Assembly: GCA_022225965.2 (NCBI GenBank)
Contig: JAKJXP020000009.1
Span: 1 to 64,000, forward strand
Length of the DNA stretch: 64,000 nucleotides
Reading direction: 5' to 3'
Source: Diatrype stigma
Taxonomy: Eukaryota; Ascomycota; Sordariomycetes; Xylariales; Diatrypaceae
Within the stretch, counting starts at the first letter, position 1. Each line of letters opens with the position of its first letter. Positions 16,279 to 20,768 of the stretch are shown here, piece after piece. The translations under genes and the position numbers were made by a program. The notes below the pieces were generated by a model that worked only from the letters and a program-made list of their open reading frames with translations, made no database searches and was not told the DNA's origin.

Positions 16279-19200
16279 ATGCAGTCCTTCAAGGCCAAGC
16301 TGGCAGGAGAAAATGCTAGGGCATCCCCGGAGCCAGGAACCGGTACTGCTACCTCGAGGCCAACGACTCTGCAGGTACCTCACATCGAACGACCCGTGTC
16401 CCTGCGTTCTGCTACGTCTACCGGGAGCGGAAGGTATCGCCATGCGTTATTGAAATATGGGGTTACTGGCCAGCAATTGATCGAAAGAGATCTACCACTT
16501 GCTGCAATTCTCACCACGGAGATGGGGGATCTCATGTCTAGCGTCAAGTATGATGAAGCCGCTTTGAGAAGCATCGCCGTACCTAGAAGGCGATCATCTC
16601 TGACCAACTTGATGGGACAACCAGGTGAGGTGCTTACCATTTCAGCGTCACCTCAACCCTCCAGAGTCTGCATTGATCCTCGGATTCACCCACCGGGTAC
16701 TCATGCACATGTTCATCATCGAGGCTTAGTCAAGGGGGCCGACTTCTGTGATGCTGGGCTCCCAGTCGACCGTGATTCACCAATACGCTCCCCAGAACCC
16801 ATCTCATCAACAAGTGCATCGAGCGGTAATATCATGTTGGGTCGAGTCCGTCGCGTGCTTGCTGGTGGCGACGTTTGTGATGAGGTAGTGGATGTCTCTC
16901 AACATATACACCGGAACCATCCAGCTTCAGTCAAGGTCCGGCCTGCCCTTGGACTACAGTATCGGGAAGAGAGGCACGATACCCGCCATGGTGTCTCCAA
17001 AGTCCGCCCTGCAGATGGACTTAACAACAGGGAAACCATCTATGATAGTGATATTGCAGAGCCAAGAACTAGACAGGAACTCACGCCAAGGCTTGTACGA
17101 TGGGGGCCAGCTGAACCACCTGAAGAACCGCAGATGCCTTCTCAAGAAGCGTCCCACTGGGAGTTTTTCCCCATACTGTCTGACAAGAAACGGGAGAGCA
17201 TCAGCTTGGTGGAGAACCTTGACTCCAATGTGCCTGTAAGAAGCAGGAAATCTTCAGTCCTTGCGAATGGTGTTGCCCCGATTCCAATCGAGGTGGCAAG
17301 ATCAAGTATAACAGGTACCAGCCAGGAGAATCGCCACCAAGAGAAAACGAAAGCAATATCACCTGCCATACTGTCAACTTCTCCTATATCTCCATCACCC
17401 ATATCGGATGACGAAGACGGACCATCAAATATAAAGCTTCTTCCAGGAAAGTTGGAGTCTAAACGCACCGTACGCTGGTTACGCAGGATCCTTGGTTATT
17501 CAGGCGCCGGTACTACGAAACTAACTACCTTGCCCGAGAAATCTCATTCCAAGCGAGAACCATATGACTTTTATGATGACCGACCTGATGTAGCTGAATC
17601 TAAGACCATAGAAGTCTCCTCAGACGACGTCACTGATGCAAGTGCCATCAGATCTGCTATGGAAAATCTGGAGAACATTCTCGGCGAAGCACTTCGGATC
17701 GCTGATGACGTGGCTACTCGAGAGACTTCAAGACATGTCGAAGAGTCCAATGCTTACTCTTCTCAGCAAGGGATCTCTCGGGTTGCAAGCCGATTACATT
17801 CTCCACCAAGTATCCACGAGAGCGTCAGGACTGTTTCGACTGACGAAAGTCAAGACACAACCGTGGTGCATCCCATTGCTTTCCTCGGGGCGGCTGAGTG
17901 CCCGACACATGGATGCGAATCTCTACCCGTAAGGTCGCTTATACGTCGTGGGTTAGCCGCACCAAATATGCATAGCGGCAATATCAGAGGCCCAGACCTT
18001 CCACCTCGCATATCTAGTCTACGGGGTACCCACAAGCTGTCCTGCATGTCTCTCAAGAACCATGACTTGGCTCGGGGGGGTTTTGCAGAGCTTCGACGAA
18101 CAGATGAATCCACGTCAGAAGAAGGTAGACCTTATCCAGATCATGCTGATTCGGCAGGCCATTTCAAGGAAGTCAATACGTGGAGTCTAGATGGAGGCTC
18201 GTCTGACGATGTTATCGATTTCCCTACGCCAAACAACTGGGCTGCCAAGGGTCACAAAGTGGCGCCGAGCTTCAGACCAACATCTCGCAATCGTGTACCA
18301 TACATGTCAGCAAAGAGCACTGGGCCCTCTCAGCAGCAAGACACCGGGACACGGGCGCACGACTTGCGCCATATAAGTCTCAAAAACAAATCGCATGTCA
18401 GCCTCGAGGAGGTGACAAAATTCAGTTTGACTAAATCTGTCAGACGACAGCCTATTGCTCGAGACTAGTCGCCTTTTCGCAAAAGGTTTGTGGCTACGAT
18501 TGCGTGTATCAGCACCGCATTGATCGGATTATTAGTTGGTATCTATGCTGGACTGGTTCCGTCTATACAGTACTACATTGCGGACTTCCACCATTATGCG
18601 ATCATTGGTAACGTGGCGCTATACGTCGGGATGGCTCTGCCAACATTCTTCTGTTGGCCTCTACCGCTGCTCCATGGTCGCAAGCCATACATCGTGTGCA
18701 GCCTGAGCTTAGCCCTGCCTCTGCTTTACCCACAAGCCATCGCAGTTTCTGTCTTGAGGTCCCCATACACAAGTGCTTGGAGATGGTACCTGCTACTACC
18801 TAGAGGCCTCATGGGGTTTGTTCTAGGCTTTGCCAGTATGAATTACCATTCGATGCTTACCGACCTCTTCGGAGCTTCTTTGATGAGCAGTATTCCACAC
18901 CAGGAAGTAGTTGACCAATACGATGTCCGAAGACATGGCAGTGGACTCGGTGTCTGGCTTGGTATTTGGACCTGGTGTTGGATTGGGTCCTTGAGCCTAG
19001 GATTTTTGATCGGAGCCGTCGTCATTGATACCTTACCGCCCTCTTGGGGTCTTTATATCAGCACAGTCCTAGTTGGAATTGTTCTGATATTGAATGTCCT
19101 TTGCCCTGAAGTCCGACGCGCGCCCTGGAGGCGGTCTGCTACTGAAGTCAGGAAAGGTACGACTGTATCTCGACGTATAGCTCGGGGCGAGATCATGATG

Positions 19201-20768
19201 CACAGGGTCAAAGATGGACCAAGATGGTGGGGCCAAGAGGCGTATCATGGGGTTGCCCTAAGCCTTGAAATGCTTCGTCAACCAGGCTTTGTCATCATGG
19301 CCGTGTATACTGCATGGATCTATGCCCAGGTCGTTCTAATCATTGTGGTAAGCAAGCTTGTGTCTGCGTTTCACTGATCTTCGGCTGACGGTGCTAGCTC
19401 CTTGGCTCATTGACTTCCAAATACTACCACTACCGGTCGCCCTATGTTGGTGCTGCAGTATCATCTGTGGCGATTGGTGCTCTAGCGGCGGTGCCATTTC
19501 AGATGGCCAACATATTCTCCAGGTCAAGGTACAATCCCCAACGAACGAACAGCATGACCTTTGACCGGGCAGTGACATGGACTTCCCACATGATCCGTCG
19601 TGTTGTTTTCGTACTAGTCCTTCCAATCGCCGGCATCCTGTATACCGTTGTCTCCTTCGGGCCGCGTGTACATGTTGCCGTCCCTTGTTTGTTCGCAGCC
19701 ATGATCGGCTTCCTATCTTGTCTGGCAATTTCTGAGTGCAACGGCTTGATGATGGAGACATAGGATACCTCCGACCTTCAGCCCGGCATGACTGGCCGTC
19801 CCAGGGCAGAGAATGAGACACAGAAAAGGACCAATTACTCCTCCTTCCCTAGAGTTACAGCTGGGTTCGCTGTCATCCATACTCTAGCTTTCATATTTGC
19901 GGCCGGGGCAACTGCAGTCGGCGGCATTGTACAACGAAAGCTGGGACAGAGAACTGCCACCGGTGTTGTAGCAGCTGTACTATGGGGGCTATCTCTGCTC
20001 CTATTAGGTGCCATGGTCCGCTTCAAAAAGGTAGAAATCATCCCTAGATCCAAGAACGGAGAGATGCAGAGATGGAACAAAGAACGTCGCGAGAGCGTGG
20101 ATCGGAGAGCCAGTGTCGTTGCAGAAGCCAAGGCCGTCGGTCGAAAAGATTTATCCAGCATTCCAGAGGAAGACGTCGGGTGGAAACCTCTGATTCTCGG
20201 TAACCCAACGAGCGCATACCGCCGCATCAATGTGATAGAACTGGGCTCACTAACCCGTTGGACTGAGATACGCAAGCGAAACCGCCTTATCGACGAAGGG
20301 GGACATGGGCATCTAAACCGGCGTGCAATGGGATTTGCTCGCGAGGAACTTGAAAGACGAGGCAATGAATTGTACGATGATATCCATCGTGGCGGCGAGA
20401 GGATCGGGCACGTGGCCCACAAGGTTAGCCGGCGAAGTCTCAGGAGCAAGCGAAGCTACGAAAGCAACCCTAGGACACCAGCCGTCGAGTTACAGGATCT
20501 CAGCTCACACAGTCCAGCTGGTGTTGGACGTGCCCACCGACGTGCACCAATTCCAGGCGGATCTGCACCCGAAGAGGTCGGAGACGGATCATTCATCGAA
20601 GATACGTCCGTGCACGGCATGGATTCGGGCGATATTGATTTCGAAGCAGACCATGTAGGTCCTATGGACGAGAGCAAGGCCGGAATCGAGGAAAGAGACT
20701 TTGAAGACGTCAACCTTGAAAATGGAACCGCCCCGCCAAGATCCAAGTCACAGAACAAGCAGGACTGA
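16279..20768 (+). CDS. Giant MFS-domain membrane protein with two in-frame UAG codons (candidate A-to-I edited gene; AMD1-like)
   Basis: Predicted major-facilitator-type membrane protein with a long soluble N-terminus. Exons are 16279-19347 and 19398-20768; the intron (50 nt, GTAAGC donor, CTGAC branch point, GCTAG acceptor) is phase 0. The frame is 1,480 codons with two internal TAG codons, at 18466-18468 (codon 730) and 19761-19763 (codon 1145), and ends in TGA. Residues 1-729 are a Ser-rich cytosolic region. After the first TAG the frame continues SPFRKRFVATIACISTALIG into a transmembrane domain with an MFS-like LPLLHGRKPYIV loop. After the second TAG it continues DTSDLQPGMTGRPR and then the last two membrane spans and a charged tail. 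TGG (Trp) at both sites would give one intact 1,479-aa protein. The start is the ATG at 16279; the frame extends ten codons upstream only to a TTG. Without recoding only the 729-aa soluble part would be made. Alternatives are a pseudogene, sequencing errors or stop readthrough. The transported substrate is unknown. Confidence 0.85.
18466..18468 (+). other. In-frame TAG no. 1: candidate UAG-to-UGG editing site
   Basis: The stop sits between RRQPIARD and SPFRKRF in an otherwise continuous frame, just before the first transmembrane segment. The middle A (18467) is in the UAG context favoured by sordariomycete A-to-I editing. It lies in the 6-nt loop of a weak 3-bp hairpin (CGA at 18460-18462 with TCG at 18469-18471). 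My memory of homologous proteins is that Trp follows this conserved RD, but this needs an alignment. Confidence 0.7.
19761..19763 (+). other. In-frame TAG no. 2: candidate UAG-to-UGG editing site in a hairpin loop
   Basis: The stop sits between ECNGLMMET and DTSDLQPGMTGRPR, in the loop before the last two membrane spans. The A at 19762 lies inside an 11-nt loop (19758-19768). The loop is closed by GGAG (19754-19757) pairing with CTCC (19769-19772), plus one outer T-G wobble. Editing sites in fungi favour hairpin loops. The ACATAG here could resemble a splice acceptor, but I see no suitable upstream donor in phase. Confidence 0.7.

What the first reader, a model, noticed from the sequence alone, without database searches (positions are those of the whole stretch)
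16279..20768. MFS-domain gene interrupted by two in-frame TAG codons: candidate for double A-to-I mRNA recoding
The sequence shows three apparent genes (729-aa Ser-rich protein, membrane protein, membrane/tail protein) that are one 1,480-codon frame across a single clean intron. There are two in-frame stops, no frameshift, and family-type sequence on both sides of each stop. Both stops are TAG, the only stop that one A-to-G change turns into Trp by the UAG-to-UGG route that sordariomycetes use during sexual development. Established knowledge: A-to-I editing in Fusarium and Neurospora prefers UAG and rescues genes with premature UAG. I recall an MFS-domain gene, AMD1, as such a case in F. graminearum (from memory, to be verified). 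Inference: this is an orthologue or relative with two required editing sites. Switching would yield a soluble 729-aa protein in vegetative cells and a 1,479-aa membrane protein in perithecia.
Basis: partly seen in the sequence, partly recalled or inferred. Interest (0 to 1): 0.96.

Follow-up and report, generated by a model that had tools for sequence, protein, structure and literature searches.

The report
Gene with two RNA-editable stop codons
A spore-release membrane-protein gene of a fungus related to Xylaria carries two stop signals where its relatives have the amino acid tryptophan, so it very probably works only after its RNA is edited at both places, which extends a known fungal trick to a two-site case.

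Summary
Window 16279-20768 (+) is one 1,480-codon frame over a 50-bp intron, interrupted only by TAG at codons 730 and 1145. It is a single-copy AMD1-type gene (11 predicted helices, MFS-like) of a Xylariales-related fungus.

Comparison with 211 homologues favours editing over decay.
- Codon 730 is Trp in 184. In 14 the gene model skips it; in 4 it is a split codon read as Tyr.
- The closest relative over the N-terminal part (P0121, 66% identical) is an ORF ending exactly before codon 730.
- Codon 1145 is Trp in 54 homologues, all in the Xylariales-side clade; 11 more models there skip it. Most others have Phe.
- Sequence beyond each TAG stays conserved: 85-87% identical to Monosporascus between the stops, 41% in codons 1-599.
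- The genome has an Ame1 homologue with the Met-Val pair that editing requires.

Neither site is the published F. graminearum AMD1 site (codon 211). Both codons appear to have switched between Trp and stop repeatedly. Not shown: RNA evidence, and relatives' DNA. The suggested vegetative 729-aa protein is not supported, because AMD1 is almost perithecium-specific in F. graminearum. Verdict: a new variant of a known kind, restorative A-to-I editing with two separated sites.

The parts
16279..20768 (+). AMD1-type gene, 1,480 codons over two exons, two in-frame TAG
16279..18465 (+). N-terminal part (codons 1-729), fast-evolving, no TM helix predicted, no Pfam family
18466..18468 (+). TAG1, codon 730; Trp in 184 of 211 homologues; relative P0121 ends exactly before this codon
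18487..18543 (+). first predicted TM helix (codons 737-755), 7 codons after TAG1
   Evidence: hydropathy
19348..19397 (+). 50-bp intron GTAAGC...GCTAG
19398..20765 (+). exon 2 coding part (codons 1024-1479), with predicted TM helices 7-11 of 11 and the C-terminal tail; terminal TGA at 20766-20768
19753..19773 (+). predicted RNA hairpin (5-bp stem, 11-nt loop) with the A of TAG2 in the loop; hairpin-loop probability 0.93
19761..19763 (+). TAG2, codon 1145; Trp in 54 and Phe in 138 of 211 homologues; between predicted TM9 and TM10

Best explanation
This is the AMD1-type gene (ascus maturation / ascospore discharge, 11-helix MFS-like protein) of a Xylariales-related fungus. Its full-length protein needs A-to-I editing of two separate UAG codons to UGG (Trp) during sexual development, by the Tad2-Tad3-Ame1 deaminase. 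Unedited RNA would give a 729-residue product with no TM helix; RNA edited only at the first site would give a 1,144-residue product with 9 of 11 helices. Shown: the frame, the two TAGs, Trp in relatives, stop-like breaks of gene models at both codons in other species, continued constraint downstream, and an Ame1 homologue with the Met-Val signature. Inferred: editing, its timing, the function in ascospore discharge, and that both edits are needed.
For: Codon 730 in 211 homologues: Trp 184, gap 14, Tyr 4, ends just before 1, model starts after 7, absent 1. In 11 models the predicted exon resumes exactly at codon 731, as if the AG of TAG were used as acceptor; the 4 Tyr cases read ARDY|TALIG, which fits an exon ending in the TA of TAG with GT taken from TAG-T. 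P0121 (66% identical, 22 member sequences, longest contig 10,489 bases) ends exactly at codon 729. Codon 1145: Trp 54, Phe 138, Tyr 1, gap 12, model ends before 3, absent 3; 4 models resume exactly at 1146. Of 40 distinct gap coordinate pairs 10 end right after a Trp column, Trp being 14 of 571 columns. Constraint: identity to P0001 is 85%, 87% and 78% in codons 731-1023, 1024-1144 and 1146-1260, against 41% in 1-599. Single copy. No RIP signal, composite index -0.61. TAG ends the DEAH-helicase frame of this window. Ame1 homologue L014 has Met-Val where its paralogues have NH, RN, LD; MV500-501 is essential for Ame1's editing function in F. graminearum (PMC11087585). A published conserved editable stop in CHE1 causes the same annotation artefacts (PMC11169179).
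Against: No RNA data. No relative's DNA could be read, so a TAG elsewhere is inferred from protein models, and the kind of stop behind P0121 is unknown. Site 1 lacks the preferred A/G at +3, and its hairpin-loop probability is 0.47; of 300 random window TAGs 29% reach that and 12% reach site 2's 0.93, and of 34 other TAGs in the coding sequence 38% and 21% do. The region before codon 1145 is gap-prone: P0021 and P0029 have gaps there that spare the Trp, and 7 of the 11 gaps over the codon in that clade do not end exactly at it. In codons 731-1023 the window departs from near-invariant columns more than most relatives (6 of 168; 6 of 65 are as high), although its kin P0001 is similar (8 of 163). 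Apart from the window, only P0127 of the 211 has a gap at both codons, and that model has other odd gaps. The unspliced ORFs P0122 and P0123 encode Trp at 730, so the stop is not needed in near kin. Two looks for other edited genes of this genome (kinases, methyltransferases) gave nothing.
Confidence: 0.82

Rival explanations
1. Bypass by splicing: a facultative in-frame intron ending at the AG of each TAG removes the stop, without editing (for example 18397-18468, 72 nt, at site 1; 19668-19763, 96 nt, at site 2).
For: In-frame GT...AG pairs exist at both sites, with a loose branch-site match 38 and 14 nt before the AG, and ten models in the set use the same 707-730 gap. FgBUD14 uses both editing and alternative splicing around its premature stop (PMC11156358).
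Against: Donors are weak (GTCAGC, GTACAT). At site 2 splicing would delete codons 1114-1145, including predicted TM9. Models choose different borders for the same codon, as ad hoc fixes would. Trp is kept at codon 730 in 184 homologues that need no fix.
Confidence: 0.08
2. Pseudogene: the gene has been lost in this lineage through nonsense mutations.
For: Two in-frame stops; somewhat raised departure from invariant columns in codons 731-1023. A very recent loss is not excluded by the simulation alone (0.02 substitutions per site).
Against: No frameshift and no premature TAA or TGA; both stops at codons where kin have Trp; relative P0121 ends at the same codon although 34% diverged, so the loss would be old; 0 of 42 invariant columns changed after TAG2; older neutral drift disagrees; no RIP signal.
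Confidence: 0.05
3. Sequencing or assembly error at one or both stops.
For: Only one assembly could be seen.
Against: A relative ends at the same codon 730; 11 models of the Xylariales-side clade skip codon 1145; two independent errors both at Trp codons are unlikely.
Confidence: 0.03
4. Stop-codon readthrough or a suppressor tRNA yields the long protein without editing.
For: Would also keep the downstream part under selection.
Against: TAG ends the DEAH-helicase frame here; it would not explain why the stops lie at Trp positions.
Confidence: 0.02

Closest known systems
AMD1 (FGRRES_10094) of Fusarium graminearum, PMC5496914
   Same: Long MFS-type protein with 11 TM helices, conserved in Sordariomycetes, full length only after UAG to UGG editing (97.6% in 8-dpf perithecia).
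   Different: One UAG at codon 211 there; here two at codons 730 and 1145 and none before 730. The Fusarium relative compared in detail (P0134, F. pseudograminearum) has Trp at 730 and Phe at 1145.
PUK1 of Fusarium graminearum, PMC4817773
   Same: Two UAG codons in one frame, both edited; individual sites not always conserved between species (PMC5381528).
   Different: The PUK1 codons are tandem (UAGUAG); here they are 415 codons apart and would fall in separate local RNA structures.
CHE1 of Fusarium graminearum, PMC11169179
   Same: Conserved premature TAG edited to a Trp codon; the same annotation artefacts in relatives (false intron, stop as gene end, downstream start).
   Different: A zinc-finger gene edited in hyphae; another gene family.

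Membership tests
AMD1 orthologue | Sequence homology to the Fusarium graminearum-group protein over the membrane part | tested here: met
   70% identity to P0134 over codons 731-1023. P0134 is F. pseudograminearum; that it is the orthologue of FGRRES_10094 was not checked directly.
AMD1 orthologue | MFS domain | tested here: inconclusive
   Pfam MFS_1 below cut-off in homologues (P0134 29.8, P0005 18.5, cut-off 33.4), no MFS hit in P0001 or in three window pieces; codons 1024-1144 not scanned. Precomputed MFS labels on many homologues. PDB profile search 0 hits.
AMD1 orthologue | 11 transmembrane helices | tested here: met
   11 hydropathy peaks in codons 737-1230, 11 in P0134; 11 reported for Amd1.
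AMD1 orthologue | Late sexual-stage expression and role in ascospore discharge | not testable with these tools
   No RNA or phenotype data for this species.
AMD1 orthologue | Premature UAG near codon 211 as in F. graminearum (not required for membership) | tested here: not met
   No stop before codon 730.
Restorative (PSC) A-to-I editing site | UAG where relatives encode Trp | tested here: met
   Codon 730: Trp 184 of 211; codon 1145: Trp 54 of 211, all in the Xylariales-side clade, Phe 138.
Restorative (PSC) A-to-I editing site | Preferred sequence: U at -1, A/G at +1 and +3 | tested here: inconclusive
   -1 and +1 met by any UAG; +3 is A at site 2 (met) and C at site 1 (not met) (preference).
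Restorative (PSC) A-to-I editing site | A in a hairpin loop | tested here: inconclusive
   Probability 0.93 at site 2, 0.47 at site 1; 12% and 29% of 300 window TAGs reach these.
Restorative (PSC) A-to-I editing site | Coding constraint beyond the stop | tested here: met
   by protein comparison; dN/dS not possible without relatives' DNA.
Restorative (PSC) A-to-I editing site | Ame1 cofactor with MV residues in the genome | tested here: met
   L014, one of 4 DUF726 loci (5 matches). The pair lies 30 residues before the Ser of GYSLG here; by the numbering MV500-501 and S531 it is 31 in F. graminearum.
Restorative (PSC) A-to-I editing site | A-to-G change in sexual-stage RNA | not testable with these tools
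   No RNA reads available.
Pseudogene | Relaxed constraint, other disabling changes | tested here: not met
   No frameshift, no premature TAA or TGA.

The most novel reading that the evidence does not exclude
Editing makes these codons evolutionarily reversible and can open a route to new amino acids. At codon 1145 most homologues have Phe (one has Tyr), while the Xylariales-side clade has Trp or a stop-like signature. The steps Phe (TTY), Tyr (TAY), TAG read as Trp by editing, then TGG are single changes that keep an aromatic residue, whereas without editing Phe cannot become Trp by single steps without a non-aromatic residue or a stop. The gene then acts as a two-site AND gate needing both edits for a full-length protein.
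Probability: 0.15. Interest if true: 0.78.

Novelty: new variant of a known kind. Interest (0 to 1): 0.6.

Why it matters
It would extend restorative stop editing, which the papers I saw describe mainly in Fusarium and Neurospora, to the Xylariales side of the Sordariomycetes, and give a case where one protein needs two distant edits. The repeated switching inferred at codons 730 and 1145 offers a natural test of whether editable stops are neutral baggage or selected switches. Gene models of this family appear to be broken at these codons in a number of genomes.

Tried and rejected
PUK1-type tandem stops as an independent sign of editing in this genome: 10 regions around kinase matches with inner stops, chosen out of 137 matches, were read; the stops look intronic or lie at domain edges, and no in-frame TAGTAG was found inside the matched stretches (one out of frame, L011); PUK1 itself was not identified. 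The methyltransferase family of RID gave no inner stop in 6 of 7 matches and 1 TAG plus 1 TAA in the weakest. Genetic-code change: rejected, TAG ends the helicase frame. RIP: rejected. A shared 12-residue gap before Trp834 in six Colletotrichum models was first taken for another dodge; being identical in all six, it is more likely a real deletion, yet it counts among the 10 of 40. Papers: search listings only; abstract and passages of PMC5496914; passages of PMC4817773, PMC9600606, PMC11087585, PMC11169179, PMC12754623, PMC5381528; parts 1 and 2 of 3 of PMC11156358. Qi et al. 2024 (Sci Adv), on adaptive restorative editing, is not held and was not read. I found no paper on editing in this group, but that rests on two searches with zero hits (A-to-I + RNA editing + Xylariales + stop codon; RNA editing + Diatrypaceae) in an open-licence library.
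Full report
What is there. The frame from 16279 to 20768 reads as 1,480 codons over one 50-bp intron (19348-19397), with stops only at codons 730 (TAG, 18466-18468), 1145 (TAG, 19761-19763) and 1480 (TGA). 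There is no frameshift. TAG is an ordinary terminator here: it ends the DEAH-helicase frame of the window, whose last Pfam domain lies close before it. The gene is single-copy in the 49-Mb assembly.

What it is. A search with the protein (X at the stops, residues 600-1479) found 772 homologues, of which the best 120 are listed; the first is Monosporascus sp. MC13-8B (Xylariales), 70% identical over 96%. Two more searches, with the N-terminal 729 residues (7 hits) and with a Dactylonectria homologue (652 hits, 120 listed), brought the set to 211 proteins. The set is therefore a sample of the closest ones, not the whole family. P0134 of F. pseudograminearum is 70% identical over codons 731-1023. 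Hydropathy gives 11 helices, as reported for Amd1 of F. graminearum. Pfam MFS_1 is below cut-off, so the MFS label rests mainly on the Amd1 paper and on precomputed labels. That P0134 is the orthologue of FGRRES_10094 was not checked directly.

Codon 730. Of 211 homologues 184 have Trp, 14 a gap, 4 Tyr, 1 ends just before, 7 start after, 1 lacks the region. The gaps and the Tyr cases look like a stop avoided by gene finders. In 11 models the exon resumes exactly at codon 731, as it would if the AG of TAG were taken as a splice acceptor. The four Tyr cases (Hypoxylon argillaceum, Nemania abortiva, Fusarium oxysporum, Trichoderma chlorosporum) read ARDY|TALIG, which fits a codon beginning TA that is split by the predicted intron. 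The nearest homologue over the N-terminal part, P0121 (22 member sequences), ends with the same ARD as the window; which stop codon it has is unknown. Less close unspliced ORFs P0122 and P0123 encode Trp there, so the codon differs among near kin.

Codon 1145. Trp in 54, Phe in 138, Tyr in 1, gap in 12; 3 models end before it and 3 lack the region. The 54 Trp cases and 11 of the 12 gaps fall in one clade of 69 rows, which holds the Xylariales and allied genera and the window (names). In four the exon resumes exactly at 1146; the other gaps over the codon are longer or end elsewhere, and P0021 and P0029 have gaps nearby that spare the Trp, so this stretch is also gap-prone. Over codons 690-1260, 59 gaps were found; 26 end right after a Trp column, and of the 40 distinct coordinate pairs 10 do, although Trp is 14 of 571 columns (binomial 3e-8 for the collapsed set; relatedness is only partly removed).

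History. On a quick FastTree of 209 rows (208 homologues and the window), leaving out the columns around the sites, codon 730 needs at least 14 switches between Trp and the stop-like state; codon 1145 needs 14 changes among four states (Phe, Tyr, Trp, stop-like), but Phe/Tyr versus Trp/stop-like only 2, and one of these must be the odd model P0127. In that tree four successive early Fusarium branches carry the stop-like signature at 730, while the group of P0134 has Trp. These states are inferred from protein models, so the numbers are rough.

Constraint. Identity to P0001 is 41% in codons 1-599, then 85%, 87% and 78% in 731-1023, 1024-1144 and 1146-1260. At columns at least 95% conserved in 65 other homologues of that clade the window departs in 6 of 168, 1 of 55 and 0 of 42. 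The first value is on the high side (6 of 65 relatives reach it), but P0001 has 8 of 163. Neutral simulation: with 0.05 substitutions per site 3.6 stops are expected after TAG1, with 0.1 6.8; with 0.02 only 1.6, so a very recent loss is not excluded by this alone. There is no RIP signal, although TGG to TAG is a change RIP could make (recalled).

Editing signals. Site 2 has A at +3 and lies in an 11-nt hairpin loop with probability 0.93; site 1 has C at +3 and 0.47. Among 300 random TAGs of the window 12% and 29% reach these values, among 34 other TAGs of the coding sequence 21% and 38%, so structure adds little. The genome has four DUF726 loci; one (L014, G000:C25) carries Met-Val at the place where F. 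graminearum Ame1 needs MV500-501, and its paralogues have NH, RN and LD. Two looks for other edited genes gave nothing.

Mechanism. By orthology the RNA would be made late in perithecium development, the Tad2-Tad3-Ame1 deaminase would change both UAG to UIG, and the ribosome would insert Trp. Unedited RNA stops seven codons before the first helix; RNA edited only at site 1 stops between helices 9 and 10. All of this paragraph is inferred.

Compared with what is known. AMD1 is a published case of restorative editing with one UAG at codon 211 (PMC5496914). PUK1 has two adjacent stops (PMC4817773). CHE1 shows the same annotation artefacts (PMC11169179). Incomplete site conservation between species is also published (PMC5381528). 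New here, as far as my searches reach, are the two distant sites, the Xylariales setting, and the apparent recurrence at fixed Trp codons.

Limits. No RNA, no DNA of relatives, no structure model, one assembly. On re-checking the calls I lowered confidence from 0.83 to 0.82, because the stretch before codon 1145 is gap-prone.

Noticed in passing
L014 (G000:C25:343932-344990): Ame1-like DUF726 gene with Met-Val at the editing-critical position; three further DUF726 loci in the genome lack it.
   Followed up: partly
homologues P0143, P0144, P0145, P0150, P0152, P0209 (Fusarium), P0171, P0188 (Trichoderma), P0208 (Metarhizium): Gene models skip codon 730, suggesting an editable stop there in Hypocreales, including four successive early Fusarium branches.
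   Followed up: partly
homologue P0127 (Dactylonectria estremocensis): Four gaps, three of exactly 10 residues, over codons 730, 950, 1145 and 1249: either several stops or a poor model.
   Followed up: no
homologue P0151: Source name 'Reducing polyketide synthase DEP5' (F. oxysporum f. sp. albedinis) sits on an AMD1-type protein: probably a misnamed record.
   Followed up: no
window 4698-7778: Long intact frame of a DEAH-box-type helicase that ends in TAG.
   Followed up: no
window 23359-24606: Frame with a strong glutamate-cysteine ligase match (Pfam GCS).
   Followed up: no
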